DNA of 64,000 nucleotides from positions 14,239,925 to 14,303,924 of the forward strand of contig OX235266.1 in NCBI GenBank assembly GCA_944472135.2. The letters run 5' to 3'. Below are positions 5,382 to 60,805 of this stretch, in pieces (position 1 is the stretch's first letter; every line of letters starts with the position of its first letter). This DNA is from Trichobilharzia regenti. Lineage: Eukaryota > Platyhelminthes > Trematoda > Strigeidida > Schistosomatidae. Both the position numbers and the translations under genes were made by a program. The notes under the pieces were generated by a model that was not told where the DNA came from, ran no database searches, and saw nothing but the letters and a program-made list of their open reading frames with translations.

Positions 5382-6047
5382 GTTCAGGTTAGATCACGGA
5401 GTGATATCAGTTATAGAACCATTGAAAACCAGCCAGGGAGTACTGGACAGCCGTCTCGTCCCCTAGTTTGGAACTTTTCAGCAGTACGCACCCAGCGCCA
5501 AGGCTTGAACTCAGCACCTTCTGGTTACAAGGCAAGCTAGCAGAACATTCAGCCACTGGGACCCGATTCAGTGGCCACTGCATGAATTCTAACTTATACC
5601 AATTCATGTTTATAACGTGACTGGCACCAAACAGTGTTTGTCTCAGGTAAGACCACGGAGTGATATCAGTTATAGAACCATTGAAAACCAGCCAGGGAGT
5701 ACTGGAAGGCTGTTTCTTTCTAGCTTGCGACTCATCGGCAGTAAGCACCTACTGGATTTCGAACCCAGGACCTTCCGGTTACAAGGCAGGCTCGTATACC
5801 ATTCTTGAAAATTATTCTGATGCTCGCTAGTGACTAACTACAGGATGAAGTCGCTTGGGGTTCCAGTGAGAAGTCGTAACCAGTGGGGTCCATCGTCCCT
5901 CCCAACTGCTTACTGCCGATGAGTCGCAAGCTAGAAAGGAACAGCTTTCCAGTACTTCCTGTCTGGTTTTCAATGATTCTATAACTGATATCACTCCGTG
6001 GTCTTACCTGAGACAAACAGAATCCCTACATACTAATTTCTGAAGAG
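5382..6047. mobile_element. Hammerhead-SINE multimer: two minus units then one plus unit, 10-bp TSD
   Basis: This block contains two tandem minus-strand units (about 5382-5640 and 5641-5830) followed by a plus-strand unit (about 5832-6016 plus 3' flank). The outer minus unit at 5639-5750 and the plus unit at 5905-6016 form a long inverted repeat. The whole block is flanked by one 10-bp duplication, TAAGCTATTA (5372-5381, 6048-6057), inside an RTE-A copy, so it arrived as one insertion. The ribozymes here are decayed: CTGAAAA core in the first, CCGATGA in the others. Confidence 0.8.
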
Positions 6048-6473
6048 TAAGCTATTACTCAACATGCATCCTGAAGGAAATGTGGGGATGCATTAGACAC
6101 ACGCTAAGGAAACCGATGAGTTACATCACTTGTTGCGTCGTCAAGTGGAATCCTAATGCAAACCGTTGAGTCAGGCTTCGGAGATTCTTTGAGGACAAGG
6201 AGATGGAGACTAGTCACGTATTTAAACTGTTAACACACCTAAAACTAATTAACTTTTCAAATAGTTACAGGGATAAATTTCTTAACTTTGAATAAAAAAC
6301 TGTTTTTCAATTCAACTCTGTCCAGACAATTTGAAGTTAAATTTTAAAGGTCACTCACTAGAAAATGCTTTTTTTTCAAATGTTAAAAACACCACAAAAT
6401 TTCATAGTGAAGAATATTATTTTTTTTTTTTAAAGATTTTAAATGAACGATTTTACTGATTATTAAGGGATAG

Positions 6474-6502
6474 ATAGATAGATAGATAGATAGCTAGATA
6501 GA
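6474..6502 (+). repeat. (GATA)n microsatellite
   Basis: A short array of GATA repeats with one interruption near 6493. The surrounding 6220-6860 is AT-rich and shows no gene; a (GA)n run lies at 6668-6683. Confidence 0.9.
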
Positions 6503-6869
6503 TGGAATGAAGACACGTGATGATTATTGATCGATACTATTACCGCTTCTGACCAATCAAATTACGCTTGTCCTTAAAATACTAACTATCTTATCTGTTA
6601 ACGATCAATACTTTGTGTATTCCATGCTGTGCATAAATAACCTAATGTAGTGGGAAATAAGTATAAGAGAGAGAGAGAGAGAAAAAAAATCACTCAGTCA
6701 CATTCTTTTTGAACATCTCTGTATTTTAGAAAGTTGAAATAAAAATCCAAAGTATACGAAAAGTTAATTTCACCTAACACTCAAAGGATGTCGCTCAGTT
6801 ACTTGATTTAATAAATGGTGATCAAGAAATCAAGTAGATACATGCTCTAAACTATTAACCACTGAATTT

Positions 6870-7505
6870 CATCATGAGATGATATCGGTGAGAGTGACAT
6901 TGAGAAACCAGCTGCAAGTAGTAGTGGACACAAACGTTTCGCCCCCAGTTTGAGACTCTTCGGTAGTACACACCTACAAACCCAGGACCTTCCAGTTAAG
7001 CGATCTAGTGGCCAGTTCAATAATTTCAACTTCTACCACTTCATACACGATATAGCGCAACTAACACTAGCCAACATCATCGGTGGCAAGTATTTGTTCT
7101 CAAACTCAACCTGCTGTACCCAACTGATCACGAATTCCCACTAGCTCACCAGCAATTGGACCTACTCCACTAGGTAGTTATCTGGATGGTTCTACTGGGA
7201 ATTCGTGATCAGTTGGGTACAGCTGATAGAGTGTGAGGATAAATACTTGCCACCGATGATACTGCCTAGTGCCAGTTGCGCTATATCGTAGGTGAATTGT
7301 CAGAAGTTGGAATTCCTGTACTGGCCATTCAACCGATTCCCAGTGGCTGAATAGTCTACAAGCTTGCCTTGTAATCGGAAGGTAGTGAGTTCGAACCCCT
7401 TGGTGTGAGTGACTACTAATGAAGAGTCCCAAACTGTGCTAACGAAACAGCCATCCAGTATTCACTGCTTTTTTCGTCCATTGGTTCTCTAACCGATGCC
7501 AGTTC
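6870..7505. mobile_element. Hammerhead-SINE foldback (minus arm, plus arm)
   Basis: A minus-strand copy (about 6870-7145) is joined head to head with a plus-strand copy (about 7190-7505). The central parts form an inverted repeat, for example GGGAATTCGTGATCAGTTGGG against its complement near 7125. Both ribozymes are decayed: the plus copy has ATGAAGA instead of CTGAAGA near 7430. The plus arm runs directly into a PLE segment at about 7508 rather than ending normally. Confidence 0.75.
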
Positions 7506-8062
7506 ACATGCGAAAAACATTACATTGGTCAAAGTGGATGTCTCATTCGTCTTCGTATCTATGATCATAAGCTAACCGTCAAAAGACACGTCATCCACTT
7601 GCTCATATCGTCTCACTACATACAGACAACTATGGACATCAATTCAACTAGGACCAGCAGCGTTCAAATATAAGACAGAGGAAACAAAAAGAATGCTAAA
7701 GAATTTTTAAAAGCCTGTTTCGTATTCCAGTGAATCATCAATCAATAGACACATCGAGATAGACAGAATTTATCAACCGATAAGAAAGAAACCTCACAGA
7801 GAAAGGGTCAAATTTCAAGTCAAAGAAACAATCAGTTCTAATACAAGTAGCCTAGAGGGTGTGACAAACTCACAGAAACAACCAATCACATTCAAGGTCA
7901 CCAGGGAATATGACTAATAAACTCATGAAGAAATCTAAAAGCTCACTTCAGCGAATTGAAGTATGCGCTGAAGATGTCGCCTAGTAGGGCAATGAAAGCT
8001 TCGCAGATTAACTATCCAGCTCAGAGAACACAACCACATCCAAATCTTCTCCACGATATGTA
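7506..8062 (+). pseudogene. PLE-2 fragment: GIY-YIG start to 3' end
   Basis: This is part of a PLE lineage (PLE-2) distinct from the one at 12926. The frame reads 'CEKHYIGQSG' then 'RLRIYDHKLTVKRH', the core of a GIY-YIG nuclease, but breaks soon after. From 7560 to 8050 it matches 55780-56190 almost line by line, including the 3' untranslated part and the hammerhead-like fold at 7962-8010. The upstream RT is absent, and the left border is fused to a hammerhead-SINE. Confidence 0.7.
7962..8010 (+). ncRNA. PLE-type minimal hammerhead ribozyme candidate
   Basis: Helix I is TGCG paired with CGCA. The core is CTGAAGA followed by T, stem II is partial (GTCGCC against GGGCAA), then GAAA, and stem III is only AGCT, with predicted cleavage just before CGCAG. 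Such very short stem III hammerheads are known in Penelope-like elements. Stem II has mismatches, so this copy may be weak. The second copy is at 55281-55328 (minus). Confidence 0.5.
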
Positions 8063-12705: not shown

Positions 12706-12735
12706 ATGTGTATTTAGTAGAAAAAAGACAAGTAG

Positions 12736-12781
12736 TTCAGTGAAGAGTCTCTTTTCGGCGAATTCATTTTCATAGCTGTAC
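12736..12781 (-). ncRNA. PLE-1 hammerhead-like fold, left arm
   Basis: This is the minus-strand counterpart of 14770-14815. It keeps the GAAA block and a stem III like that of the right arm, but one change in the GCTG helix I strand (CACTG) and the non-canonical first core block make self-cleavage doubtful. Confidence 0.35.
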
Positions 12782-12925
12782 AATCGCAAATATTGTACAT
12801 GGTTATTTGTGTGTGTGTGTGCATACATTAAATTTGTCAAACGAAAATACAATTAGTAAGTTCAGATGAATTGGATGTCGATAAGAGGATAGCAACAAAA
12901 GTGATGAGTTGTCAAAAGAAAAAGA

Positions 12926-14389
12926 ATGCAAACCCAAAAGTTAATCACTCATGAACTTTATGATCAGATCCGATCGACAGGGTCAACAATACGAAGACTG
13001 TATGGCTTACCAAAGGTACATAAAGCCAACCTCCCACTTCGTCCAATTCTGGATATGTCAGGTTCCCCGTACCATTCAATAGCGAAATGGCTCACTGACA
13101 TTTTAGAACCTGTACGAAAAAGAATGTGCCACTATTCACTTCGTGACACTTTCCAATTCGTCGATTACATTAAAGATATCAATACAAAGAACAAAACTAT
13201 GCTCTTCCTCGACATTGAATCACTATTTACCAACGTTCCACTCACAGAAACTGTCTCTTACATTTGTCACTATATCGACGAAAATCAGCTGAACATCGGA
13301 TTACCGACGACCTGTTTAAAAGAACTACTACTGAGGTGTACACTCAATGTACAATTCACATTCGACGAGGTTATTTACAGACAACGAGATGGGATCGCAA
13401 TGGGATCTCCACTGGGCCCATTACTAGCAGACTGCTTCATGGCAAGCCTCGAGAACGGCCCACTCAAATCGATCATCGACAATTTCCGGTTGTACGTTAG
13501 ATATGTTGACGACATCTTTATCATCTGTGATGACGTTCACGATCTCAATCAACTACCGCAAATATTCAACAAATGCCATCCAGTCACTAAGTTCACTCTG
13601 GAAACTGAAAATGAATCTAAAATCCCTTTTCTTGATGTTGAGCTTACAAGGAGAGATGACGGAACTTTAAGAAGATCAGTCCATAGGAAACCCACTTGGA
13701 ACGGACAATTAACAAGTTTCTACAGCTGGGTACCAATCAGTCGGAAAAGAAACCTAATTAAATCCTTTGCCACTCGCGTCAGACGCATCTGCAGCTCCGA
13801 CACCATGGAAGAAGAACTAAACTTCCTGAAAGAAATCTTCATACAAAATGGCTACCCACCAAGATTCGTAGACAAAAACATCAAACAGAAAAACCAAAAG
13901 CAAGAGACACCATCCGTGCCTAAAAAGATACTTTATATGAACCTAGACTTCAAAGGAGACCTACTTAGTGACGTCCTCAGAAGGAGAATTTCCACCTCTT
14001 TAGGAAGAACTTTCCCTGCGGCAACATTAAGAATAGTGTTCTCCAGTCGCCCGCTGATCTGCAGAAACCCAAAGGACAAGATTCCGCACATGACCACTTC
14101 TATGTGTATATATCAGTTCACCTGTTGCTGTGGAGCCAGGTACATCGGTCGTTCAACGCGCATCCTGTCAAAAAGGGTCAAAGAACACTATCCAGCGTGG
14201 CTACAGAAAGGAAATAACGGCCATATAAGGAGTGCAATAATCGAACATCTCGTCACCACTGGTCATTCCATCTCAACAAACGCCTCCTTCAAAGTAATCT
14301 ACAAAGTGAAGAACAACCTTCTAAAGACAGTACGATTCCGTCTTCTTTGCATCGCAGAAGCCCTAGCCATTCAGTTGGTGGAACCATAA
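12926..14389 (+). CDS. PLE reverse transcriptase-GIY-YIG endonuclease, N-truncated
   Basis: This encodes the core enzyme of a Penelope-like retroelement, which copies element RNA into DNA at a cut chromosomal site. In order it shows RT block 'LYGLPKVHK' (about residue 25), 'LFLDIESLF' (first catalytic Asp, about 93), 'AMGSPLGPL' (about 157), 'RYVDDIFII' (catalytic YVDD, about 192) and 'IPFLDVELT' (about 235). A basic linker follows, then the GIY-YIG domain from about 394 ('FTCCCGARYIGRS', 'RVKEHYPAW', 'AIIEHLVTTGH'). The N terminus before RT block 1 is missing, and no natural start codon can be chosen. A TAA cuts the frame a few codons before the family's 'ELCIQK' end. Of the PLE copies in the window it is the only one with an uninterrupted RT. 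Confidence 0.9.
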   Translation: MQTQKLITHELYDQIRSTGSTIRRLYGLPKVHKANLPLRPILDMSGSPYHSIAKWLTDILEPVRKRMCHYSLRDTFQFVDYIKDINTKNKTMLFLDIESLFTNVPLTETVSYICHYIDENQLNIGLPTTCLKELLLRCTLNVQFTFDEVIYRQRDGIAMGSPLGPLLADCFMASLENGPLKSIIDNFRLYVRYVDDIFIICDDVHDLNQLPQIFNKCHPVTKFTLETENESKIPFLDVELTRRDDGTLRRSVHRKPTWNGQLTSFYSWVPISRKRNLIKSFATRVRRICSSDTMEEELNFLKEIFIQNGYPPRFVDKNIKQKNQKQETPSVPKKILYMNLDFKGDLLSDVLRRRISTSLGRTFPAATLRIVFSSRPLICRNPKDKIPHMTTSMCIYQFTCCCGARYIGRSTRILSKRVKEHYPAWLQKGNNGHIRSAIIEHLVTTGHSISTNASFKVIYKVKNNLLKTVRFRLLCIAEALAIQLVEP

Positions 14390-14769
14390 CTATGCATACA
14401 AAAGAAAATTATTCAACCACTTCTACTCGCATGGTGACAACTCCGTTGATTTGACCTAACTTTTCTTTGTTTGTTTGATTTGACCTTACTTCTGTTTGTA
14501 TGCTTATTTTTCTAACTTAAAACCCTTGTGTAATTCTGTATATTATTTTGTTTCCATGTACACCCTGAGCACAACTCATTCATCAAACTATTCATGCCAT
14601 TACGTAACTCTTATTTAACAATCATTTGTGACAACTCATCACTTTTGTTACTATCCTCTTATCAACATCCAATTCATCTGAACTTACTAATTGTATTTTC
14701 GTTTGACAAATTTAATGTATACACACACACACACACACACACACAAAATAACCATATATATTTGCGATT

Positions 14770-14815
14770 GTACAGCTATGAAAATGAATTCGCCGAAAAG
14801 AGACTCTTCGCTGAA
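14770..14815 (+). ncRNA. PLE-1 hammerhead-like fold, right arm
   Basis: CAGC and GCTG can form helix I, CGCCGAAAAGAG contains the GAAA block, and AAGA/TCTT makes stem III before a TTC cleavage-like triplet. The first core block (CTATGAAA) departs from CUGANGA. A (AC)n microsatellite precedes it at 14719-14745. Confidence 0.4.
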
Positions 14816-14879
14816 CTACTTGTCTTTTTTCTACTAATGTTCGAATGGGAATTATTCATCAGTGTGTATTTATAAATTT

Positions 14880-15245
14880 AACTGTTCATGTGCAGATATT
14901 TACAGCAGACAGGTAGAACGATTCGGCAAGCCAACCGTGGTCTTCAGGAGCATTACCCAACGTGGTTAGGTAAAGGAGCCATAAAATCAATCATAAGTTC
15001 CATCCTGGCAGACCAAACGGATAGCAAGCAAAATACTGACAAAAATTCAGCTTATACAATTCTCTATAATGTGTGCCACCTTAAGTTGGTAGGTTTTAGG
15101 CTGCTAAGCTTAACGGGGGCAGTTGCTATAATGATTTTTCAAAGCAATCTCTGTGTTCAGAAAAAGTTACTTTCAGTCTCTACCCCTGCCTTGGCTTTAA
15201 ACCCCAATAAAAAAATAGTTATCTCTTCAGGTGACACCAGAAAAC
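14880..15245 (+). pseudogene. PLE fragment of another lineage: GIY-YIG part
   Basis: The open stretch 14888-15250 reads 'YLQQTGRTIRQANRGLQEH', 'YPTWLGKGAIKS', then 'LSLTGAVAI' and 'LCVQKKLLS'. This is the GIY-YIG end of a PLE that differs clearly from PLE-1. It lacks the RT and the first GIY motif. It lies directly beside the target duplication of PLE-1, so PLE-1 may have inserted into or next to it. Confidence 0.65.
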
Positions 15246-15678: not shown

Positions 15679-16195
15679 CGCTCTTCAAGTATTGTTTTTT
15701 AGGGATTTGAGTGATTGGTTACAAGATTTCATCATGAGCTGACATCGGTTATAGAGAACAATTGGGAAAACAGCGATGAGTACCTGGATGGCTGTTTCGT
15801 CAGCACAGTTTGGAACTCTTCATCAGTACGCACCCTCCGGGTTCGAACCCACTACCTGATGGTTACAAAACGAGCCGGCTTGTAGACCATTAAGCTATTG
15901 GGATCCGATCCTATGGCCAACCCATGAATTTCAACTTCTGCCAATTCACGACATAGCGCAACGCTAGCTAATGTCTTCAGCGGGTATTTTTCCTCACACC
16001 CGACCTACTGCAGTACTCTACTACTCATAACTTCCCACTAGAATTCCAGGTAACTACCTACTTGAGTAGCGTCAGTTGTCAGTGAGCATCTCAATGACAT
16101 TCAAGTATTGGTTTGTAGGGATTTGATTGATTGGTTACAGGATTTCATCATGGTTCTCTAACCAATGTCAGTTCATGATGAAACCTGGTAACCAA
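15679..16195. mobile_element. Hammerhead-SINE: minus unit, tandem start, short plus arm
   Basis: A full minus-strand unit (15679-16095) is followed by the 3' start of a second minus unit (16100-16155) that flips into a short plus-strand piece (16155-16195). A possible 7-bp duplication, TAAATCG (15672-15678, 16196-16202), surrounds it. The ribozyme near 15790-15830 reads ATGAAGA at the core, so the invariant C is lost. Confidence 0.7.
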
Positions 16196-16202
16196 TAAAT
16201 CG

Positions 16203-21910: not shown

Positions 21911-24294
21911 TTGGTGGCAGTGTATACAAGCACAAAGATATCCACAAGGCTACATGGGTGTCACCAGACGGGCAAACCAAAAACCAAATCGACTTCATCT
22001 CAATCTCAAGGAAGTGGAGGCGCAGCCTACTGGACACAAAAGCAAGAAGAGGAGCAGACGTTGGCTCAGACCACTATCTCGTACAAGGGACAATCCAAAT
22101 CAAATTAAAAGCTTTCAGGGAATCAGGAGCTGCAGATAGACCACAAGCCAAGTTCAACACTCAAAAGCTGAAGGACCAGGCTACAAAGGACATCTTCATT
22201 GCAAGCATAAAGGACAAAGCCGAGACACAAATCAACACCAGCGAAAAGGTTAGCGTCGAAAAGCACTGGAACAACTTGAAAACGGTGTGGAGCCAAACCT
22301 GCATAGAAATTCTAGGCAGAAAAAAGAGACAGGACAAACAGTGGCTCACTACGGACACTTGGAAACTAATAGAAGAGAGAAGGACAGTGAAGCAAAAGAT
22401 TATCCAGTGCACTGACGAGCAACAAAAACAGGAGCTGAATGCAAGCTACAATACACTGAACAAAAGAGTGAAGAAGAGTGCCAGGGAAGACAAAAGAAAA
22501 TATTATGAAACCATGGCAAACGAAGCAGAACAAGCTGCAGGCAAAGGAGACCTCGCCACACTCTACCAAACAACTAGGAACCTTTCGGGCAAACGTTCGA
22601 CACAGATTAAGCCAATAAAGGACGACAATGGAAAGTCAATCACCAAAGAGGTGGAACAGAGAAAGCACTGGGTTGAACACTTCAAAAGACTTCTAAATCG
22701 TCCGCCACCTACAACACGTCCAGCAATACCAACAACGGAAGCAGAACTACCAGTGAACACTGACCCCCCGACGAAATCAGAAGTCCTGAATGCAATCAAG
22801 ATGCTAAAAGCTGGGAAAACACCGGGACCAGATGGAATCCCAGCAGAGGCTTTGAAAATAGACCCAGAGACAACAGCGGACTTGATGACACCACTGCTGG
22901 AGAAGGTGTGGAAAGAGGGCAAAGTACCCGAGGATTGGAAGAACGGATACTTATTCAAACTTCCAAAGAAAGGAGACTTAAGTCAATGTAAAAACTGGCG
23001 TGGAATTATGCTTCTGTCCATTCCAAGCAAGATACTAAGTCGCATCATCCTGGAGAGAATCAAACAAGCCCTAGATGAAAAACTTCGTCCGGAACAGGCT
23101 GGATTCAGGAGAAACAAATCATGTATTGATCAAATCGCCACTCTACGGATCATCATTGAACAAAGCTTGGAATGGCAGTCACCTCTCTATCTCAACTTCA
23201 TCGACTTTGAAAAGGCCTTCGACAGCGTCGATCGAGAGGTCATTTGGAAACTACTTCGCTACTACGGGGTCCCATCGACAATTATACACCTCATCCAACA
23301 GTTATACGACAATGCTGCATGCCAAGTAATCCACAACGGGAAACTTACGGAAGCCTTCGAAGTGAGGACGGGAGTGAGGCAAGGCTGTCTACTATCACCA
23401 ATGATCTTCCTGATTGCAATTGATTGGATAATGCGACAGACAACGGCAACCAACGAGGGAACAGGCATAAAATGGACTGACACAAAAGACTTGGAGGATC
23501 TGGATTTCGCCGATGATATATGTCTGATTTCCCATAAACTGGAAGATATGCAAGTGAAAAGTAACAAGTTGGCAGAAGAAGCATCAAAGATAGGACTTCA
23601 CGTGAACATAGATAAAACAGAGATGATGAAGATTCCTAGCCAACATCAACAACAACAACAGACAACAATAAGCATAAATGGGAAGAACCTGAAAGAAACA
23701 ACCTCCTTCACCTACCTGGGAAGCATCGTCTCAACTACAGGCGGAACTGACGAGGACATCAAAGCCAGAATCGGAAAAGCAAGACAAGCTTTCATTACTC
23801 TCAAATCTGTGTGGAGGTCAACAGCACTCAGCATCAAAAATAAGATCCGGATTTTCAACTCCAATGTGAAGTCAGTGCTACTATACGGATCAGAGACTTG
23901 GCGAGTCATAAAGAGCATCTCAAACAAACTTCAAACCTTCATTAACAACTGTCTCCGCTCAATACTCAAGATCAGATGGCCAGAAAAGATCAGCAACAGG
24001 GATCTCTGGGAGCGAACCAATCAGGAACCGATTGTGAAACAAATAGGCAGAAAGAAATGGAGATGGATTGGCCATACGCTGAGGAAACCATCAAGTGACA
24101 TCACTAGACAAGCCATCTCGAGTGGAACCCGAAAGGGAGGCGGCGAGTTGGTCGTCGCAAGGGTGACTTGGAGGAGGTCATGTGAAGAGGAGATGAAAGC
24201 ATGTGGGCAGACCTGGAGCGGGGTGAAAAAGTTGTCAGAAAACCGAAGTCAATGGAGGTGCGCAGCTGAAGCCCTATGTTCCTCTAGGAACTAA
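21907..24294 (+). CDS. RTE-A reverse transcriptase (main part of ORF)
   Basis: This frame continues the endonuclease ('IDFISISRKWR', 'GSDHYLVQG' at about residue 57), then a Lys-rich linker and the RT. Seen: 'GKTPGPDGIPAEAL', 'GYLFKLPKKGD', 'EQAGFRRNKSCIDQ', 'FIDFEKAFDSVDRE', 'GVRQGCLLSP', and the catalytic 'DFADD' at about residue 533. The C-terminal 'GRKKWRWIGHTLRKPSSD' and a Trp/Arg-rich tail end 'ALCSSRN'. No stop interrupts these 795 codons. The reading frame has no ATG of its own at the start, because it is the frameshifted continuation of 21323-21910. With one lesion only, this is likely one of the younger LINEs in the window. Confidence 0.92.
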   Translation: MIGGSVYKHKDIHKATWVSPDGQTKNQIDFISISRKWRRSLLDTKARRGADVGSDHYLVQGTIQIKLKAFRESGAADRPQAKFNTQKLKDQATKDIFIASIKDKAETQINTSEKVSVEKHWNNLKTVWSQTCIEILGRKKRQDKQWLTTDTWKLIEERRTVKQKIIQCTDEQQKQELNASYNTLNKRVKKSAREDKRKYYETMANEAEQAAGKGDLATLYQTTRNLSGKRSTQIKPIKDDNGKSITKEVEQRKHWVEHFKRLLNRPPPTTRPAIPTTEAELPVNTDPPTKSEVLNAIKMLKAGKTPGPDGIPAEALKIDPETTADLMTPLLEKVWKEGKVPEDWKNGYLFKLPKKGDLSQCKNWRGIMLLSIPSKILSRIILERIKQALDEKLRPEQAGFRRNKSCIDQIATLRIIIEQSLEWQSPLYLNFIDFEKAFDSVDREVIWKLLRYYGVPSTIIHLIQQLYDNAACQVIHNGKLTEAFEVRTGVRQGCLLSPMIFLIAIDWIMRQTTATNEGTGIKWTDTKDLEDLDFADDICLISHKLEDMQVKSNKLAEEASKIGLHVNIDKTEMMKIPSQHQQQQQTTISINGKNLKETTSFTYLGSIVSTTGGTDEDIKARIGKARQAFITLKSVWRSTALSIKNKIRIFNSNVKSVLLYGSETWRVIKSISNKLQTFINNCLRSILKIRWPEKISNRDLWERTNQEPIVKQIGRKKWRWIGHTLRKPSSDITRQAISSGTRKGGGELVVARVTWRRSCEEEMKACGQTWSGVKKLSENRSQWRCAAEALCSSRN

Positions 24295-30019: not shown

Positions 30020-30207
30020 GACAGTGTAGACTGTTTAGTTGGGAACCTAAAGGAATGCTAAACTGGTTATATGCCTCAAAACTGTTCTCACTGCTGCAGA
30101 TGTATTCACTCTTTGTAATTTCCTAGATCCACTGAGTCCCTAAGGTTCTCCATGTAAAACTATTCTTTACCCAGAAACCTTTCCCTTTCAAAGTTTTTTT
30201 CATCTAT

Positions 30208-32118
30208 GTGTAAAACTTGAGTACTGTGGTAGTATGTAATCGCATATTAGTTTGTTTATTAAGATATATCAGACACATAGTGAAACAGTGTTATTTACTG
30301 GGTATGAAAGTTCCGAACACAAGTTATTACTGTTCATAATCATATCATCAATTATAATCATACGACTTCGAAAGTTGAGTTTTACAGTTGTCTTTGTTCT
30401 CTCTTATTTTTCGTCGTTGGAGTAGCAGAATTTTCCGGATGTTTTGGGGGGTGAGGGCTTACGGCGAGTTGTCATCTGAACTGATGACGACTAGTGGTCT
30501 CCGTCAAGGATGCCCATTATCCCCTTTTAACTTCATCATAGATGTACTAATGGACTTAACCCTAAGTGACTTCAGTGAGTCGGGTATTGACTTGCTACCA
30601 GGAAATAATCTCGTTGACTTGGAACATACAGACGATATAGTCCTACTAGGCGAGGACACTGACAAAATGTAGAGTCTTCTAAACACCTTGAACAGCAATC
30701 TACGAATGTTTGGCATGCGATTCACTCCCGCCAAATGCAAGATGATGTTACAGGACTGGACTACATCGACGCCTAGTTTAAAAATAGGAAGTGAAGTGGT
30801 AGAGCACGTTGACCGCTTCACTTATTTGGGAAGTACCATCAGCCCCAACGGGTTGATCTCTGACGAAATCTCAGCACGAATACAAGGGGCTCGTTTCGCA
30901 TTTGCCAGTTTACGCCGACTCTGGTGTAGACGAGATGTTCGACCATCGACCAAAGGGCGGGTTTACTGCTCATCAGTCCGCTCCGTCCTCATTTATGGCT
31001 AGCTGTGAGACCTGGCCATTGAGAGTGGAAGACATGAAAAGACTAGCTGTCTTTGATCATAGATGCCTGCGCTCTATTTCCCGTGTGAAGTGGCATAATA
31101 AGGTGAGCAATATTGAGGTTAGGCGTCGAGCTCTAGGTAAACAGGGGAAATCAATCGACGGAGTTATGAAGTTACAAAGACTGAGATGGTTAGGAGATGT
31201 GTTACGTATGCCAAGTCATCGCCTCCCTCGATGGGCAATGTTAGCGGATATAGGGTCAGGCTGGAAAGGAGCTAGCGGCGGTCAGACAAAAACTTGGCCT
31301 CACCAGTCAATGAAATCCACAACAGTTGGTCTAAGCCACGTAGGAAGGTGTAGACTTCCAGGCTGGGGTCCTCGGGACGGTAAAAATCTATGGTTGGAAA
31401 CAATTGGTGACATGGCTCAAAATCGTTCTCAGTGGCGCAGATGCATCCACTCCTTGTGACTTATGATCTCCAATGAAACTGTTTTGTTCTTCTTTATTAC
31501 TCCTCCTTTGTCTCACACCTCTGCTTACTGTCTCTATTATGCTTTTCTTGTACTTTATTCTCTTGCTTCGTGTGCTACACGGAGTGTGGCGACTCGAACT
31601 GCCGCACATTTGTGCAAAGTTCTATGTCGAAAACAGACAGACAGATGTTTTGGTGGACAGGTGTTGAATCATTCCTATTACACGTAACGGTTTGCAGTTG
31701 ATTCGATAAGAAATCTAGAGAATAGTTCAACTATACCACTCACTACATGTGATTACACACAACTATACAATAGAATGATGGGATAACATGACAGTTTTAA
31801 AATCTAACGTCACAGCAGGGTGGAGGGAGAGATTGATAACAGAGGCCTTGTTTGTCGGATTAACTGCAAAGCGATAAGTGTAATAGGAATGATTCAACAC
31901 CTGTCCACTCAGATATGTGGAAAATTCTACTAACGGAACGACAACTAATAGGAAAGGACAAAGATGACTTTATAGTCTTCTCAAGTTTCGAAGTCGTGTG
32001 ATTATAATTGATGAAATGATTATGAACAGCAATAAATTTTGTTCGAAACTTCGTCATCCAGTAAATAATAATACTGTTTCACTCACTGTGTGATGCATCT
32101 AATAAGCAAACATGGAAA
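30208..32118. mobile_element. PLE-3 foldback, split by RTE-B
   Basis: A minus-strand PLE-3 3' segment (30208-30447 continuing at 31644-31698) is joined head to head to a plus-strand PLE-3 segment (31700-32118). The plus arm contains 'MTVLKSNVTAGWRERLI'-type codons and the 3' end with the hammerhead-like block at about 31990-32070. RTE-B (30448-31643) interrupts the minus arm. Both arms have their 3' ends outward, the same polarity as all other foldbacks here. Confidence 0.72.
30448..31643 (+). mobile_element. RTE-B LINE, 5'-truncated
   Basis: This is the longest RTE-B copy. The RT palm starts at 'GLRQGCPLSPFNFI' (30497), the catalytic box reads 'EHTDDIVLLGE', then 'FTYLGSTISPNGL' and, after a frameshift near 31000, the C terminus 'CETWPLRVEDMKRL' to 'RRCIHSL' (31459). 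A stop at 30670 also breaks it. A 3' untranslated region and short ACAG repeats follow. It lies inside a PLE-3 copy and is flanked by GATGTTTTGG at 30438-30447 and 31644-31653. Confidence 0.88.
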
Positions 32119-32376
32119 ATTCTTTTCAATTTTTCATAGAGTACAACAACTTGAACTGTTGCACTTCTAAGCATGGATCCATGCTAGAACTCAGTCATTA
32201 AATCATACACCCGACCAGTTATTTTCCAGAATATTCTTCTACTATTGCCTGATAATAATAAGTTAAAAATGCAATCTGCCCACCTAGGAATATTTCTGAC
32301 AGTATCACTGTTACTTGACATGCTTCTATCATTCTTGTTCAGTATGCCTAATATTGAAAACAGTAAACCTAGCTGG

Positions 32377-33579: not shown

Positions 33580-33850
33580 CGAGTATTAGTTCGTAGGGAT
33601 TTCATTCATTCCTGGTTTGGTCATGGGTTGATATTACTGAAAATAAGAGAGTAATGAACAGCTGTTCCGTACTCAGTGGCTGAATAGGGAACGTCCTCGC
33701 TTCATAATCTGAATGTCCTGGGTTCGACCTCTGCTGGGTGGTGTCATTGATGTGTACTCCTGAAGAGTAGCAAACTACGAAGAGACAGCTGTCTAGTACT
33801 CTCAGCTGGTTTTCAACGATCCTCTAACCGATATCACACCGTGATCAAAC
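33580..33850. mobile_element. Hammerhead-SINE foldback
   Basis: A short minus arm (33580-33672) is joined head to head to a plus arm (33673-33850). The plus arm carries a B box GGTTCGACCTC and the ribozyme 33754-33799. Both arms have their element 3' side outward. Confidence 0.68.
33754..33799 (+). ncRNA. Hammerhead ribozyme copy with covarying stem II
   Basis: The core is CTGAAGA and helix I is GTACT/AGTAC. Stem II is GTAG/CTAC with a CAAA loop, where sister copies have GTCC/GGAC, so both strands changed together. A 3-base insertion turns the GAAA block into GAAGAGA, so it is probably inactive now. Confidence 0.6.
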
Positions 33851-44084: not shown

Positions 44085-44840
44085 ATGCGATTGCCATGTC
44101 ACATTCAACATAGAAAAGACAGAGGTGGTGAAGATAACCAACGAACCGTAACAACAACGACAGCAACCCGCACCGATCACCATCAAGGGGAGAGATTTGA
44201 CAGAGGTTACCTCCTTCATTTCGCTGGGAAGCATCGTGACAATTACAGGTAGAATGGATGAAGATGTCGACAGCCAGAATTGGAAAGGCAAGATACACCT
44301 TCATCAACCTGAAACCAACTTGGAAATCTTCTACACTCAACCTAATGAAAAAGATTCGCATTTTGAACACCGATATGAAGTCAGTGAGTCAGTCGTCTTT
44401 TCTATACGGGTCACGAAAAGGATTTCCAACAGTCTGCTGAAGACTTTCATCAACAGCTGTCCACCTCGCTGGTTCCATACTGAAAATCAAGTGGCCGGAA
44501 GTAATAAAAAGAAACTCTGCCTGGGAACAAACCAACAGGCGAGAGCCTATTGCTCAACAAATATGTAGGAGAAAATGGAGATGGATTGTTTGGGCATACA
44601 TTGAAGAAACCATCTAACGACATCGCCCGCCAGGTTCTCGAGTGGAATCCGTATGAGAAGTGACGAGTGAGTCGTCGGTGAGAGGGTGACATGGAGGAGG
44701 TTGTGTGATATGAAGTAGATGAGACACTCTGGACAATCGTGGACCCAGCTGAAGAGGATGACAGAAAACAGAAGAAAGTGGAGATATGTTGTTGAAGCCC
44801 TATATTCCACTCGGGACCCAAGGGAGCAATAACAATGATA
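44085..44840 (+). pseudogene. RTE-A remnant, C-terminal (plus)
   Basis: It starts in 'NIEKTEVVKITNEP', continues with 'EVTSFISLGSIVTITGR', 'KIKWPEVI' and the terminal 'ALYSTRDPR', and ends in a short AATAACAATG tail. Several frameshifts break the frame. Confidence 0.78.
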
Positions 44841-45795: not shown

Positions 45796-45956
45796 CAGTA
45801 ACCTGTGAACCATCATTCAGTGTAATCAATTTCAGGTCTTTAAATAGTCTCCGATAAGTGGTTCAAGAAATGCTTTTAAAAACTTCGGAATATACTCACA
45901 AATAAAAGTAATAATAATGATAATAATATTTTAAAAAATCAATGTAATCTCATATA

Positions 45957-45962
45957 ACTCAC
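45957..45962 (-). promoter_or_regulatory. 5' splice site of the junctophilin-like exon
   Basis: Read on the minus strand, the exon end GGATGGAG is followed by GTGAGT, a near-consensus donor. After it, the frame soon becomes non-conserved. Confidence 0.72.
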
Positions 45963-46371
45963 CTCCATCCGCGTATGTTTCAACGCCAAATCTTGGAAAA
46001 CCATTTTCAAATTCTCCTTCAAATCTCCCAATTGAATTCTCTTTACACTTTATTCCAAGCGTGATAAAATCATCTTTAAACCGCCCCATTATTACCCAAT
46101 CCTCTCTTGTGAATATACCATATCCATTGCGTCGATTTTGTGCCCATTCCCCTTCGTACATAGCACCAGGTGCATTAGGCCATAAGAAGACACCACTTTT
46201 CTCAGAACCAGAATCCCATAGACCTGTATACTCGCCTTGGCATTTATCTTTTGTAATTAAACCCAAACCAACAGCTTTTTCATTCAACCATTCACCAATA
46301 TATAATCCAGAATCTTTGAATTCATATCTACCAGCTGGTAGACAGGTGGCCTCAGTTTTTATTTGATCCAT
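45963..46371 (-). CDS. Junctophilin-like MORN-repeat protein, first coding exon
   Basis: This is the one convincing host coding exon. Starting at ATG 46371, the minus strand encodes about 136 residues of MORN repeats: 'GRYEFKDSGLYIGEWLNEK', 'CQGEYTGLWDSG', 'VFLWPNAPGAMYEGEWAQNR', 'NGYGIFTRED', then 'GRFEGEFENGFPRFGVETY' ending at ADGG. The order, and especially 'GEY.G.W..G' followed by 'YADGG', matches the N terminus of junctophilins, which tether plasma membrane to the endoplasmic reticulum. The exon ends at a strong donor, GGAG|GTGAGT (plus strand 45957-45966), with one base left over (phase 1), where junctophilins continue within the same MORN repeat. An in-frame TGA lies 15 bp upstream of the ATG. 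No further exon was found, so the next intron probably covers much of the window to the left. Confidence 0.75.
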
Positions 46372-46417
46372 GAATTCCACGACTCAATTTATCAATGAGA
46401 CATATTGTTTCTTGCCC

Positions 46418-51059: not shown

Positions 51060-51345
51060 TTGAATTTTGATCATGGGTCGATATCAGTTATAGAACGAAT
51101 CAATGAAAATCACCACGGAATACTGGACAGCTGTTTCGTTCTAGTTCAAAACTCTTCATCAGAATGCACTCACCGAGTCTCAAGACAAATACTCATCATC
51201 AAACATAACACTGACTGGGGCCAACTGGGCTAAAACCACGAATTGGTAGAAGCTTGAATTCACGAGTTGGCCTTTGAATAGGGTCCCAGTGGCTAAATAT
51301 CCTATAAGTTTTACTTGTAATCGGAATGTCCTGGATTCTAAACAG
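51060..51345. mobile_element. Hammerhead-SINE foldback
   Basis: A minus arm (51060-51180) with ribozyme region (ATGAAGA core, inactive) is joined head to head to a plus arm (51181-51345) that contains the promoter part (GTCCCAGTGGCTAAATATC) but stops before its ribozyme. Possible border duplication TAATCTAA (51033-51040 and 51353-51360), weak. Confidence 0.65.
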
Positions 51346-53184: not shown

Positions 53185-53265
53185 AATAACTGAGATAGAC
53201 TAATGAAGAAGTCTATAATTTTAGAAAAATCATAGAAGAATCGTGAATGAAACAGATTTTATTGA

Positions 53266-53795
53266 TTAGTAGGTTTATTAGATATATTACACAGTGAGTG
53301 AAACAGTATCATTTACTGGATGGCACAGTTTCGAACACAATCTAGTATTTTGCATAACCATATGAATTATAATCACGCAACTTCGAAACTTGAGTTTTAT
53401 AGTTTTCTTTGTTCTCTTCAATTTGTCGTCGTAGGGGTAGTCGAATTTGCGAGATATTCAGGTGGACAGGTGTTGAATCATTACTATTACACGTATTGGT
53501 TTGCAGTTGATTCGATAAACAAAGCTTCTGTTATCAATCTCTCCCTTCACCCTGCTGTGACGTTAGATTTTAAAACTGTCATCTTATCCCATACCATCTT
53601 ATTGTATGGTTGTGTGTAACAGCATGCAGTGCTATAGCTGAATTATAGCTGCGATTATAATTGATGCTATGGTTATGAACAATAAATTTTGTTCGAAACG
53701 TCATCATCCAGTAAATCAGCATACTGTTTCACTCACTGTGAGTGATACATCTAATAAACAAACTAATGTGGAATTACTCACTACCACAGTGCCTA
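53266..53795. mobile_element. PLE-3 foldback insertion, 12-bp TSD
   Basis: A minus arm (53266-53645) carries the last PLE-3 codons and 3' end. It is joined head to head to a plus arm (53646-53795) that carries only the 3' end. A perfect 12-bp duplication AGATTTTATTGA (53254-53265, 53796-53807) brackets the pair. Both arms include the hammerhead-like block, so the two outer ends are both element 3' ends. Confidence 0.85.
53650..53715 (+). ncRNA. PLE-3 hammerhead-like fold
   Basis: Helix I GATG(C/A)T pairs with ATCATC, stem II is GAACAA/TTGTTC, then GAAA, a two-pair stem III (ACGT), and a cleavage triplet GTC before ATCATC. The first core block reads ATGGTTAT (ATGATTAT in other copies) instead of CUGANGA. 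This is conserved across copies but departs from the active consensus. Confidence 0.4.
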
Positions 53796-53811
53796 AGATT
53801 TTATTGAATAC

Positions 53812-55146: not shown

Positions 55147-55229
55147 GGTCAAACTATTCTCTTGATGGAAATTTAGGGGTTATATATGATTATCAATATC
55201 AAGGCAAACAGACTTTGATGGAGAAGATT

Positions 55230-56190
55230 TTTAGCTCAGGTGGGTGATTTTGACGTGGTTGTGTTCTGAGCTGGATAGTTTATTTGCGAAGCTTTCAGTG
55301 TCCAACTAGGCAACATCTTCAGCGCATACTTCAATTCCAAGTGAGCTTTTGGAGTTCTCCACAAGTTCACTTCGTGACTCCGAACGTGATAGGTTGTTTT
55401 TGTTTGTTTTCACATCCTCTAGGTTACTTGTATGGGAACTGATTGTTTCCTTGACCTGAAGTTTAACCTTTTGTGTGTGTGAGATTTCCTTTGATTTAGC
55501 TCCCAAGGAAAGCACAAAGAAAATCACCTTACCATATATAAAAGACATCTCAAAAATCACTGCAAGACTTTTCAAACTTTTAAAATTGACGTCGCACACA
55601 GACCAACAGAATCACTGAACTCAGCCAGCTCTGTGTCAACCGACAGACTCAACAGCGAAAGAAGATAAAACCAACATCATCTACAAAATAAATTGTAACA
55701 ACTGTGAAAAACACTACATTGGCCAAAGTGGACAGTGTCCCCTTCGTCTTCGTATCCATGATCATAAGCTAGCCGTCAAAAGACATGTCATCCACTCCCT
55801 CATATCGCCTCACTACATACAGACAACCATGGACATCATTTCGACTGGGAAAACCAGCGTTGAAATATGAGACAGAAGAAACACCAAGAATGCTAGAGAA
55901 TTTTTAGAAGGCTGCCTGGTACTCCAGTGAATCATTAATTAATATACACATTGAGATAGACAAAATTTACCAACCGATAAGAAAGAAATCTCACACACAA
56001 AGGGTCAAACGTCAGGTCGACGAAACAATCAGATCCAATACAAGTGGCATAGAAGGTGTGAAAATACACAAAAACAACCAATCACATTCAAGGTCACCCA
56101 CCATAAGAGATGACTAATAAACCCGTGGAGAAATCTAAAAGCTCACTTCGAATTGAAGTATGCGCTGAAGATGCTGCCTAGTTGATTTGT
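55230..56190. mobile_element. PLE-2 foldback: minus 3' arm, plus GIY-YIG arm
   Basis: The left arm (about 55230-55495) is a minus-strand PLE-2 3' end including the hammerhead candidate 55281-55328. The right arm (55496-56190) is plus-strand. It starts in the region before the nuclease ('LPYIKDISKITARLFKLL'), then 'IIYKINCNNCEKHYIGQSG' and 'HDHKLAVKRHV' (GIY-YIG), and the same 3' end, cut off within the ribozyme (CTGAAGATGCTGCC). The frame of the right arm is broken by stops. Polarity is 3' ends outward. Confidence 0.78.
55281..55328 (-). ncRNA. PLE-2 minimal hammerhead candidate
   Basis: Minus strand: helix I TGCG/CGCA, core CTGAAGA plus T, partial stem II (CC/GG and GT/AC pairs), then GAAA, stem III AGCT, and cleavage predicted just before CGCAA. 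Same design as 7962-8010. Confidence 0.5.
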
Positions 56191-56214
56191 ATGAAAAAAA
56201 ACGATTAAATGACA

Positions 56215-56525
56215 TTCAGGTTAGACCAAGAAATGATATCACTTCCCGTATCATTGGGGATAAAAAATTACCGGACATCTACTTGGTCCTAGTTTGGGAC
56301 TCTTCACTAGTAAGCATCAATTACTCCATTGTGGAGTCGAAAGCAGTGGCTCAGTGGTCATCGGGCCTGCTTCAAAAGCTGAGTTCTAGGGTCATCCACA
56401 CTCACTTCTGAATAATCCAATACCGGGAAAAGAACACCTGCTCAGTCCTCCTTGGTTTTCAGTGATCTTCTAACTGATCTCATTACGTGATCTTACCTGA
56501 ATCTGCAAACCAACACATGGGAACT
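56215..56525. mobile_element. Hammerhead-SINE foldback, decayed
   Basis: A minus arm (56215-56330) and a plus arm (56335-56525) are joined head to head; each outer end carries the ATTCAGGT/ACCTGAAT 3' sequence. The promoter and ribozyme regions are heavily mutated. Confidence 0.65.
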
Positions 56526-58469: not shown

Positions 58470-59517
58470 AAGTCGCATCATTCTGAACAGACTGAAAAAT
58501 GCTCTGGATGCAGAAATCCTCCGGGAAAAAGATGGTTTCAAAAAAAGTAAGTCATGTGGGGATTAAATTTCAACGAGACGTATTATCACAGTACAGAGCA
58601 TAGAATGCGAGTCAAACCCTCATCTCAATTCCATCGACTTTGCGAGGGCTTTTGACAGCGTTGACCGAGAAGTAATTTAGCAACAACTTTAACACTAGAG
58701 AGTGCATTGTTGCGAACCTTCATCAATCTGATTCAGCGGCTTTATAACAATGCCACATGTCAAGTGCTCTATAATGGTTAACTCAGCGAAGGCTTTGAAG
58801 TGAAGACAGGAGTAAGGCAAGATTATCTGACCACTATCACCGATAATATTCATGATTGTAGTGGACTAGATTACGGGGATGGAGAAGACAGACATACGCT
58901 GAACTGACGAGAAGGTACTAGAAGATCTGGACTTTGAGAATGATTTATGCCTAATGTCAGACATAGGCAGAAACCGACTAGCTGTCAGAAGAGACTGGCG
59001 TTGGAGACATAAATTCAAGTGAACAAAAAGAAGACAAAGGGGATGAGGATAGCCAACCAATAACAACGATAAGTACCAATCACTACCAACGGGGAAAATT
59101 TGAACCAGGTCACTTCTTTCGCTTATTTGGGTAGCATTGCTTCAACCACAAATGAAGGCCTAGATCAGGATATCGAAACCCACTAGGGTAGTAAGGATTT
59201 GACAGACCATCAGAAACCTGAAATCAGTATGAATCTACTTAACTCAGAATAAAGAACAAACTTCGGATTTTCAGCACCGACGTCAAGTCTGTCAGTCCTT
59301 CTATATGAGTCAGAGAAATGTTGCGTCGTCAAAACACCTTCCAACAGGCTGCTGCACACTTTCATCAACGGCCGCCTTCTCTCCATATTGAAAATCATAC
59401 GCCTGGCGGGAAAAATAAACAACAAGAAACCCTAGTAACGAAATAATCAAGGACCTACCACCGAGCAAATATTCCGAAGAAAATGGAGATAGATTGGATA
59501 AATATTGAGGGCCATTA
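58470..59517 (+). pseudogene. RTE-A remnant, RT to C terminus
   Basis: Reads 'LNSIDFARAFDSVDREVI' (58625), 'LIQRLYNNATCQVLYNG' (58735), 'EDLDFENDLCLMS' (the FADD box lost), then 'FAYLGSIASTT' and the C-terminal 'RRKWR'. Several frameshifts. It ends where a PLE-1 copy begins. Confidence 0.75.
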
Positions 59518-59518
59518 G

Positions 59519-60226
59519 ATCAGCGAAGAGTCTCTTTTTGGCGGCGAATTCATTTTCATAGCTGTACAATCGCAAATATGGATATGGCTGTTTTGTATGT
59601 GTGTGTACATTAAATTTGTCAAACGAAAATACAATAAGTAAGTTCAGACTAATTAGATATTGATATAAGAGGGTTGTAACAAAAGTGATGAGTTGTTCTA
59701 AACGATTGTTAAAGAGGAGTTACGTATTAACATGAATAGTTTGATGAAATAGTTGTGCTAAGGATGTACATGCAAACAAAATAATATACGGAATTACCTG
59801 AGAGTTTTAAGTAGTTAGGAGAATAAGCATACAAATAAAAGCTAAGTCAAATCAACAGAGTTGTTACCATGATAATAGAAATGGTTAAATAATTTTCTTT
59901 TGTATGCATAGTTCTGGTTTTTCTAACTAAAAATGGCTAGGACTTCTGCAATGCAAAGAAGACGGAAACGCATTGTCTTTAGCAGGTTGTTCTTCACTTT
60001 GTAGATTACTTTGAAGGAGGCATTTGTTGAGACGGAATGACCAGTGTTGACGAGATGTTCGATTATTTCCCTCCATATACAGCCACTACTTCCTTTCTGC
60101 AGCACCGCTGGAGAGTGTTTTTTGACCCTTTTTGACAGAATGCGCGTCGATGTGTATATATCAGTTCACCTGTTGCAGTGGAGTCAGGTACATCTGTCGT
60201 TCGACGCGCATCCTGTCAAAAAGATT
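59519..60226 (-). mobile_element. PLE-1 copy with inverted 5' piece
   Basis: The minus-strand part (60152-59519) contains the GIY-YIG end ('IIEHLVNTGHSVSTNASF', 'VIYKVKNNLLKTMRF') and the whole 3' end with the terminal fold at 59519-59567. The plus-strand piece 60153-60226 is the immediately upstream PLE segment ('MCIYISVHLLQWSQV' region, CATCTGTCGTTCGACGCGC) in opposite orientation. The sequence GACGCGCATCCTGTCAAAAAG is represented in both parts. This is a 5' inversion of the kind twin priming makes. Confidence 0.78.
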
Positions 60227-60423
60227 ATGGACAAATTACGGTAAAGGGCCTGGATCTGCTTTTTAGCCTAGCTGTTCCATCCAAAGTCATTGATACCTGT
60301 GCAAGTTTTGAGTGTGTAAAGTTGAATCTTCGCTGTCATCTTTATCCTTACTATCATACCGTGTTATAATCCCACATTTTAATCTTTGTTTCGCAATTTA
60401 TTATTCAAACTAAATACGTTATT

Positions 60424-60805
60424 TAAGTGTTGGTTTGTAGGGATTTGATTGGTTACAGGATTTTCATCATAATCTGACGTTGGTTAGAGAACCATTGGAA
60501 AACCTGGGAGTACTGCACAGCTGTTTCGTCATAGTTTGGGACTCTTCGGCAGTACGCACCCACCGGGGTTCGTGCTATGTCGTGAATTGACAGAAGTTAG
60601 AATTTATGGGCCATTGGAATGGGTCTCAATGAGTGGCTTAATGGTCTGCGAGCTAGCTTGCCTTGTAACCAGAAGGTCCTGGGTTCGAGTCCCTTGGTGT
60701 GGATGCGTACTGCTGAAGAGTCCCAAACTAGGATGAAACAGCTGTCCAGTACTCGCAGGTTTTTTAGTGGTTCTCTAAGAAACGTCAGCTGATGATGAAA
60801 TCCTG
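60424..60805. mobile_element. Hammerhead-SINE foldback, 13-bp TSD
   Basis: A minus arm (60424-60570) is joined head to head to a plus arm (60571-60805). Both arms contain the ribozyme and 3' flank. A perfect 13-bp duplication TAAATACGTTATT (60411-60423, 60806-60818) brackets the pair, showing one insertion event. The minus-arm ribozyme is mutated (CCGAAGA core, GTG triplet); the plus-arm one is near intact. Confidence 0.87.
60707..60752 (+). ncRNA. Type I hammerhead ribozyme, near intact
   Basis: Helix I GTACTG/CAGTAC is perfect. The core is CTGAAGA, stem II is GTCC/GGAT (closing pair a G-U wobble), then GAAA, stem III is ACAG/CTGT, and cleavage is predicted after GTC. Promoter boxes TGGCTTAATGG (60632) and GGTTCGAGTCC (60681) lie just upstream. 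Confidence 0.8.

What the first reader, a model, noticed from the sequence alone, without database searches (positions are those of the whole stretch)
5382..60805. Shared 3'-out foldback architecture in PLEs and hammerhead SINEs
At least eleven insertions consist of two arms joined head to head, minus then plus, with an element 3' end at each outer border. They are PLE-1 12717-14862 and 59519-60226; PLE-2 55230-56190; PLE-3 30208-32118 and 53266-53795; and hammerhead SINEs 5382-6047, 6870-7505, 33580-33850, 51060-51345, 56215-56525 and 60424-60805. Four have perfect 10-13 bp target duplications round the whole pair, so each is one insertion. In most, both arms contain the same 3' region, which ordinary twin priming of a single RNA does not give. 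I infer that both nicked target ends prime copying of separate or multimeric RNAs, and that the SINEs ride on the PLE machinery.
Basis: partly seen in the sequence, partly recalled or inferred. Interest (0 to 1): 0.85.

Follow-up and report, generated by a model that had tools for sequence, protein, structure and literature searches.

The report
Hammerhead SINEs inserted Penelope-style as foldbacks
In a blood-fluke genome, short self-cutting repeats (hammerhead SINEs) often insert as mirror-image pairs with the same two alternative ends as Penelope retroelements, which suggests that they borrow Penelope's copying enzyme and that the enzyme copies from both cut DNA strands.

Summary
The foldbacks are real and widespread. 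In the window plus 20 randomly placed 10-kb stretches, 21 of 53 hammerhead-SINE clusters are head-to-head pairs with element 3' ends outward; no cluster is a plain plus-minus pair. Controls: 2 of 50 for an RTE-tailed SINE, 1 of 66 for four LINE queries. The four perfect duplications are correct; exact empty sites for four foldbacks show single insertions.

In 20 of 20 pairs with duplications of 9 bp or more (14 SINE, 6 Penelope-like), one arm ends at a 'short' site and the other about 30 nt further, at a 'tail' site; ignoring duplications, 23 of 27 classifiable SINE pairs do. Such a tail is described as unique to Penelope-like elements (PLEs; PMC11167929). Single copies use either site equally (13:13 SINE, 6:7 PLE-2).

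Best reading: a PLE-type protein cuts both strands and each 3' end primes at one of two internal RNA sites. PLE foldbacks and in vitro two-strand extension are published; the complete signature in a hammerhead SINE and the one-of-each rule I did not find in print. The partner PLE is unidentified.

The parts
60411..60818 (.). Hammerhead-SINE foldback 60424-60805 inside 13-bp duplication TAAATACGTTATT; left arm (-) ends at the tail site, right arm (+) at the short site
   Evidence: hammerhead in both arms (60510-60555 -, 60707-60752 +)
5372..6057 (.). Hammerhead-SINE foldback 5382-6047 inside 10-bp duplication TAAGCTATTA; left arm short, right arm tail; flanks match RTE copies
   Evidence: approximate empty-site matches only
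6864..7507 (.). Hammerhead-SINE foldback; both outer ends near the short site; no duplication found
33580..33850 (.). Hammerhead-SINE foldback, left arm tail, right arm short; no convincing duplication
51066..51342 (.). Split SINE copy, minus 239-354 then plus 79-242: right border is not a 3' end (ordinary 5'-inversion geometry); 8-bp repeat TAATCTAA near the borders
56215..56525 (.). Hammerhead-SINE foldback; left arm short; right arm reads on to a tail-like TGCAAACCAACACATGG (by eye; the profile scores it short); no duplication found
15692..16198 (.).
12707..14872 (.). PLE-1 foldback inside 10-bp duplication TGTGTATTTA; left arm short (12717), right arm with 28-nt tail (to 14862); flanks match other PLE copies
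   Evidence: empty-site match
12908..14389 (+). Open reverse-transcriptase ORF (493 aa) within the PLE-1 right arm
   Evidence: PF00078 E 8.1e-12; best relative 76% Trichobilharzia regenti
59516..60226 (.). PLE-1 copy with minus 3' arm and an internal ORF piece in plus: right border is not a 3' end
55216..56186 (.). PLE-2 foldback; left arm reads into the tail (to about 55216), right arm stops about 50 nt before the short site; no duplication found
30196..32137 (.). PLE-3 foldback with 8-bp duplication TTTTTCAT (left tail, right near short), split by a nested RTE-like insertion (about 30448-31643, duplication GATGTTTTGG 30438-30447/31644-31653)
53254..53807 (.). PLE-3 foldback inside 12-bp duplication AGATTTTATTGA; left arm short, right arm tail

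Best explanation
The hammerhead SINEs are short, ribozyme-bearing repeats with a tRNA-like region that are inserted by the protein of a Penelope-like element. A PLE-type RT-endonuclease cuts both target strands about 9-15 bp apart. Each freed 3' end primes reverse transcription inside a multimeric SINE RNA, one at the 'short' site and the other at the 'tail' site about 31 nt downstream. Both cDNAs run towards the RNA's 5' side, stop at independent points and are joined head to head, giving a foldback flanked by a target duplication. When only one cDNA survives, a single 5'-truncated copy ends at either site. Shown: one-insertion foldbacks, duplications, two preferred ends, one of each in duplication-bracketed pairs, multimeric template. 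Inferred: the PLE protein as the agent, both-end priming in vivo, end joining.
For: Orientation: 21 '-+', 0 '+-' (one '+-+') among 53 SINE clusters of window + 200 kb. Controls in the same DNA: RTE-tailed SINE2 2 of 50, one member of each pair having its own 10- or 14-bp repeat; RTE1 1 of 37 (not 3' to 3'); RTEb 0 of 9; CR1b 0 of 18; CR1a 0 of 2. PLE 3' ends by hand: 8 foldbacks with a 3' region on both borders among 20. Duplications of 9-15 bp round 20 foldbacks; exact empty sites for SINE foldbacks L002, L003, L034 and for PLE-1 at 12707. Two preferred 3' ends: one short + one tail in 20 of 20 duplication-bracketed foldbacks; 14 of 17 (window + random) and 9 of 10 (selected loci) by profile coordinates regardless of duplications. 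Single copies 13 short:13 tail, 5 neither (SINE, random + window), 6:7 (young PLE-2). Linker of 18-25 nt at 14 of 14 unit junctions, so both start sites are internal. Capped genome list of 40 PLE-2 places: four close '-+' pairs (two of them one segmental duplication), no close '+-', two tandem pairs 2,591 bp apart. Published: tail unique to PLEs and equal to the stretch between two RT start sites; both strands cleaved and extended (PMC11167929).
Against: No sequence outside the SINE clusters in hand shares the SINE's 3' end, so the partner PLE is unidentified. The one purified PLE showed no difference in start site between strands in vitro (PMC11167929), so a strict one-of-each rule was not predicted. 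Exceptions among classifiable SINE foldbacks: 2 short+short and 1 tail+tail (window + random), 1 short+short (selected); five more have one outer end at neither site. Two PLE-2 foldbacks without duplications do not fit either: window 55216-56186 (tail + an end about 50 nt before the short site) and L017 (short + an end about 27 nt before it). For PLE-1 and PLE-3 the short ends of different copies differ by about 7-8 nt and the PLE-3 tails by about 20. The SINE AC-rich stretch has no significant fold (z -0.57, -0.79), unlike PLE-2 (z -3.67). No expression, protein or insertion assay was possible.
Confidence: 0.78

Rival explanations
1. Self-priming (snap-back): one cDNA is made by target priming, its 3' end folds back and copies the cDNA itself, giving a head-to-head palindrome. 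A related idea (self-priming on an antisense template) was proposed for Adineta Penelope elements (PMC3846280).
For: Arms of the youngest foldbacks are identical or nearly so (L044 249 nt 100%, L045 276 nt 100%, L046 349 nt 99.7%). The profile matches of the two arms often overlap by a few bases at the junction. In 5 of 14 SINE foldbacks the inner ends lie within 50 nt of each other.
Against: The short end is also the 3' end of 13 of 26 classifiable single SINE copies and 6 of 13 young PLE-2 copies, so it is a start site, not a place where snap-back copying stops. In 9 of 14 SINE foldbacks the inner ends differ by 115-327 nt, the tail arm reaching further in five and the short arm in four. A direct target duplication round the pair needs no hairpin opening in the two-primer model.
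Confidence: 0.13
2. Ordinary L1-style twin priming on one RNA by a LINE (RTE or CR1) protein.
For: Twin priming (recalled) also gives 3'-out minus-plus pairs with target duplications; one window copy (51066-51342) has exactly this geometry.
Against: Twin priming does not copy the same 3' region into both arms. RTE, CR1 and an RTE-tailed SINE in the same DNA rarely show such pairs. No LINE is known to me to leave a two-site tail.
Confidence: 0.05
3. Two independent nested or adjacent insertions, or chimeric assembly, that look like pairs.
For: Both SINE and PLE families are very common (first look: 8,033 and 5,555 candidates), so adjacent copies occur; many pairs have no recognisable duplication (17 of 21 in window + random lack a perfect one of 10 bp or more).
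Against: Orientation 21:0, duplication round the pair, exact empty sites, one short + one tail end in 20 of 20.
Confidence: 0.04

Closest known systems
Penelope-like elements (Adineta Pen families, PMC3846280; Anolis PAc, PMC11167929)
   Same: Head-to-head inverted pairs with target duplications, partial tandems, a 31-bp tail on one of the inverted pLTRs; two internal RT start sites; both strands cut and extended in vitro; hammerhead motif (PAc)
   Different: The SINE has no ORF; its unit is about 407 nt; no similarity of its 3' end to PLE-1/2/3 was found. The strict one-short-one-tail rule is not stated in the passages and sections I read
Animal non-LTR retrozymes (PMC7229834, PMC7761336; passages)
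   Same: Non-autonomous, type I hammerhead, units of a few hundred nt occurring as multimers, larger target duplications, proposed PLE mobilisation
   Different: Reported as tandem repeats; no inverted pairs or tails in the passages read. Here 21 of 53 clusters are foldbacks of a monomer or partial dimer
Schistosome SMalpha SINE-like family (Ferbeyre et al. 1998, seen only as cited in PMC8490949)
   Same: SINE-like repeat with a type I hammerhead in a schistosome (the similar W36.2_W001 is 335 bp)
   Different: No foldback or tail described in the passages read; sequence identity to SMalpha was not tested here
L1 twin priming (recalled; listing)
   Same: 3'-out inverted pair, target duplication, both target ends act as primers
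   Different: Second arm is the 5' part of the same RNA; no shared 3' region, no tail

Membership tests
PLE-mobilised element | Two preferred 3' ends about 30-40 nt apart (tail signature) | tested here: met
   SINE; PLE-2 for comparison:
PLE-mobilised element | Head-to-head inverted copies within a target duplication | tested here: met
PLE-mobilised element | Partial tandem organisation (multimeric template) | tested here: met
   linker of 18-25 nt at 14 of 14 unit junctions
PLE-mobilised element | 3' sequence shared with an autonomous PLE of the same genome | tested here: inconclusive
   none in window, random and selected loci; only a small part of the genome was in hand
PLE-mobilised element | PLE protein uses this RNA | not testable with these tools
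   needs biochemistry
Animal retrozyme | Type I hammerhead in the repeat unit | tested here: met
   8 window hits to RF00163; 13 hits in the 7 loci scanned of 23
Animal retrozyme | Expressed as small circular RNA | not testable with these tools
   no RNA data
SINE | Internal pol III promoter (tRNA-like A and B boxes) | tested here: inconclusive
   GTGGCTTAATGGTCT and GGTTCGAACCC read by eye in the consensus; no tRNA or promoter scan was run
Penelope-like element (PLE-1) | Reverse transcriptase of PLE type | tested here: met
   493-aa ORF, PF00078 E 8.1e-12; relatives carry PF00078 and PF26215; that it is of PLE type rests on by-eye motifs and the foldback/tail structure
Penelope-like element (PLE-1) | GIY-YIG endonuclease domain | tested here: inconclusive
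   no Pfam GIY-YIG match up to E 0.5; one of the 120 listed relatives carries PF01541
Penelope-like element (PLE-2) | GIY-YIG endonuclease domain | tested here: inconclusive
   64-aa piece 55670-55861: PF01541 E 0.018, below the curated cut-off
Penelope-like element (PLE-3) | PLE ORF in the same element | not tested
L1-type twin priming | Second arm holds only the 5' part of the RNA | tested here: not met
   arms overlap by 50 or more profile positions in the 27 minus-plus pairs listed; the twin-priming geometry is met by window 51066-51342

The most novel reading that the evidence does not exclude
PLE-type target-primed reverse transcription is two-sited by design: in one insertion complex the two nicked target strands are assigned to the two different RNA start sites, one each, so the tail is the footprint of a built-in division of labour (perhaps first and second strand) on one multimeric RNA. 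Hammerhead SINEs are PLE parasites that kept both sites and the ribozyme.
Probability: 0.48. Interest if true: 0.78.

Novelty: new variant of a known kind. Interest (0 to 1): 0.67.

Why it matters
How Penelope-like elements insert, why their copies are inverted and why a tail is 'optional' are open questions; self-priming on antisense RNA was proposed in 2013 and two-strand extension was seen in vitro in 2024. The genomic rule found here (one short and one tail end in the duplication-bracketed pairs) can be tested at once in any PLE-rich genome and argues for paired priming. It also gives structural evidence, beyond co-occurrence, for which enzyme moves hammerhead SINEs/retrozymes.

Tried and rejected
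Chance adjacency, LINE twin priming, snap-back and assembly chimera were considered and ranked (rival explanations). Same RNA or two RNAs per foldback: arms of 13 young foldbacks agree at 101 of 130 polymorphic positions against a shuffled mean of 57% (0 of 2000 shuffles reach it), yet unrelated copies are often as similar; left open. Partner PLE by 3' similarity: nothing convincing. Hammerheads in PLE-1 (window 14400-14900) and PLE-2 (window 55200-56300, L017) by Rfam up to E 5: none, though PLE-2 reads CTGAAGA-stem-GAAA by eye; PLE-3 was not scanned at that threshold. Target-site motif oriented by the tail arm: AT-rich, no strand difference claimed. A wide RTE pair (41836-43215/44107-44843) looked like a foldback but has no outer repeat above 6 bp. 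SINE2's two '-+' pairs are counted as '-+' in the tests but are probably neighbours, since one member of each has its own 10- or 14-bp repeat.

Not done: genome-wide counts beyond the roughly 284 kb of fetched genome DNA (of which L001 and L029 repeat other stretches), other species, RNA data.
Full report
What was checked. The window lies in a 954-Mb genome of 548 contigs.

The observation. All eleven places hold minus-then-plus pairs. Nine have a 3' region on both borders. 59519-60226 has an internal ORF piece as its right arm, and 51060-51345 is a split copy whose right arm ends at profile position 242. The four perfect duplications are as stated. PLE-3 at 30208-32118 is interrupted by a nested RTE-like insertion with its own duplication. 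A further SINE foldback lies at 15692-16198.

More than chance. With copies joined when at most 150 bp apart, window plus random stretches hold 53 SINE clusters: 21 '-+', 31 of one orientation, one '+-+', no '+-'. The 23 selected loci, less two that repeat other DNA (L001, L029), hold 29 clusters: 11 '-+', 15 of one orientation, and three others ('+-', '-+-', '+-+'); L030 and L031, both single, look like one duplicated locus and were both kept. In the same window plus random DNA, an RTE-tailed tRNA-like SINE gives 2 '-+' of 50 clusters, RTE1 1 '-+' (not 3' to 3') and 1 '+-' of 37, RTEb 0 of 9, CR1b 0 of 18 and CR1a 0 of 2. One copy of each SINE2 pair has its own 10- or 14-bp flanking repeat, so they are probably neighbours. 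Fisher tests: 9.5e-6 against SINE2, 4.2e-8 against the pooled LINE queries. PLE 3' ends counted by hand: 8 foldbacks with 3' regions on both borders among 20. Many CR1b matches fall on the stretch of that query that holds SINE2, so the CR1 control is weak.

One insertion, not two. Among window and random foldbacks, 4 of 21 have a perfect repeat of 10 bp or more at their borders; mismatched flank pairs reach this in 1.2%. Among the selected loci, which favour young copies, 7 of 11 do. Removing the whole foldback and one repeat copy restores a continuous match to other copies of the target repeat exactly at the joint for SINE foldbacks L002, L003 and L034 and for PLE-1 at 12707; L038 and window 5372 match only roughly (15 joints tested, 6 with a spanning match).

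The new clue: two preferred ends. In the first 11 SINE foldbacks with repeats of 10 bp or more, one arm stops near ...GATGAAATCC(TG) and the other runs on about 31-34 nt to ...CAAACCAACACTTGA (11 of 11). Three more SINE foldbacks (L046-L048) and six PLE foldbacks of three families (window 12707 and 53254; L023; L026; L044; L045) do the same, making 20 of 20 with repeats of 9-15 bp (listed). I chose these by their duplications, not by their ends; L044-L048 were picked from hit lists because two matches lay close together, and most ends in this set were read by eye from printed sequence. Between copies the PLE-1 and PLE-3 short ends differ by about 7-8 nt and the PLE-3 tails by about 20. Foldbacks with shorter or no repeats were left out of the 20. 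Among them are misfits: L007 (7 bp; short+short by the profile), window PLE-2 (tail + an end about 50 nt before the short site) and L017 PLE-2 (short + an end about 27 nt before it); L032 (8 bp) is short+tail. Counting SINE foldbacks by profile coordinate alone, with no regard to duplications: 14 of 17 classifiable in window + random and 9 of 10 in selected loci are one short + one tail; exceptions are 2 short+short and 1 tail+tail, and 1 short+short; 4 of 21 and 1 of 11 have an end at neither site. One window exception (56215-56525) has a tail by eye. Single-orientation copies in window + random are 13 short, 13 tail, 5 neither, so the rule belongs to pairs. Those in the selected set are 10 tail, 5 neither, but the queries favour the full 3' end. 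For PLE-2, 13 young 3' ends of plus-strand matches fall 6 within a few bases of one position and 7 some 30-38 nt further; whether each is a single copy was not checked.

Templates. Where an arm runs past one unit, the next unit follows after a near-constant linker: 14 of 14 true unit junctions lie at 18-25 nt after correction, nine of them at 21 (four further same-strand joints in that list are internal gaps, not unit junctions). Both start sites are therefore internal to a multimeric or circular RNA, as published for the PLE of Anolis, where reverse transcription starts inside an AC-rich stem-loop away from the RNA end (PMC11167929). The SINE stretch between the sites is AC-rich too, as is the region round PLE-2's short site, which lies in the loop of a predicted 7-bp stem (z -3.67; the SINE is not significant).

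Mechanism. I think a PLE-type protein cuts both strands 9-15 bp apart, both 3' ends prime on internal sites, and the two cDNAs are joined head to head. The short site is a real start, since it ends half of the classifiable single copies; this speaks against snap-back copying, as do inner ends that differ by 115-327 nt in 9 of 14 SINE foldbacks, either arm reaching further; in the other 5 of 14 they lie within 50 nt and would also suit snap-back. Whether the two primers use one RNA is open: arms agree more than shuffled arms (101 of 130 against 57%), but unrelated copies are often as close. If sites were chosen independently at equal odds, 20 of 20 mixed pairs would be about one in a million, and 23 of 27 has p 1.6e-4; so I favour a fixed assignment within one complex. 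This goes beyond the in vitro report, which saw no strand difference in start site.

Against known work. PMC3846280 (discussion in full, search passages elsewhere) already gives head-to-head inverted pLTRs, 8-10 bp duplications, a 31-bp tail optionally present on one of the inverted pLTRs, and explains head-to-head by self-priming. PMC11167929 (main-text section in full) gives two start sites, the tail between them and two-strand extension. PMC7761336 (passages) proposes PLEs as movers of animal retrozymes because they co-occur; PMC7229834 (passages) describes such retrozymes as tandem repeats; PMC8490949, PMC4465651 and PMC12910113 (passages) cover schistosome SMalpha-like elements, Trichobilharzia PLE sequences and Drosophila virilis elements. 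The listings of searches showed no report of foldbacks or tails in hammerhead SINEs; most subscription papers are not held, among them Craig et al. 2021 and Lunse et al. 2017. The novelty claim is limited accordingly.

Verdict. The PLE half is known. The full PLE signature in a hammerhead SINE, with controls, and the one-of-each rule are the new parts: a new variant of a known kind.

Noticed in passing
window 32376-32608 and 49 other clusters: A second tRNA-like SINE without hammerhead whose last ~40 nt match the 3' end of RTE1 copies (for example 24266-24301, 41845-41882, 44792-44829), so probably RTE-mobilised; used as control.
   Followed up: partly
window 30448-31643: RTE-like fragment nested in the PLE-3 foldback with 10-bp duplication GATGTTTTGG; the Rfam mir-3492 match at 30814-30891 (-) lies inside it and so is probably part of a repeat.
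   Followed up: partly
window 4744-4763 and 5147-5166: Perfect 20-bp direct repeat round a SINE copy that is the unit's own 3' end, a partial-tandem trace and not a target duplication.
   Followed up: partly
L010 1-2805 and 3485-6292: A 2.8-kb inverted repeat, 100% identical, 679 bp apart, with no match to the families used; nature unknown.
   Followed up: no
L044 and L045: Two PLE-2 foldbacks with different junctions (overlaps 249 and 276 nt, opposite arm longer) show the same 462-nt difference in arm length; coincidence or a hint at the joining step.
   Followed up: no
G000 C5:59404968-59408007 and C1:106827116-106830155: PLE-2 3' regions in direct repeat at a 2,591-bp period in both places, the tandem organisation expected of PLEs.
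   Followed up: no
window 25885-29859: Long Gypsy-like ORFs in two frames (by eye); as a BLAST query it had no match in the random stretches.
   Followed up: no
window 45931-46383 (-): ORF with MORN-like repeats by eye (YIGEW, YEGEW), possibly a host gene exon; no family search was run on it.
   Followed up: no
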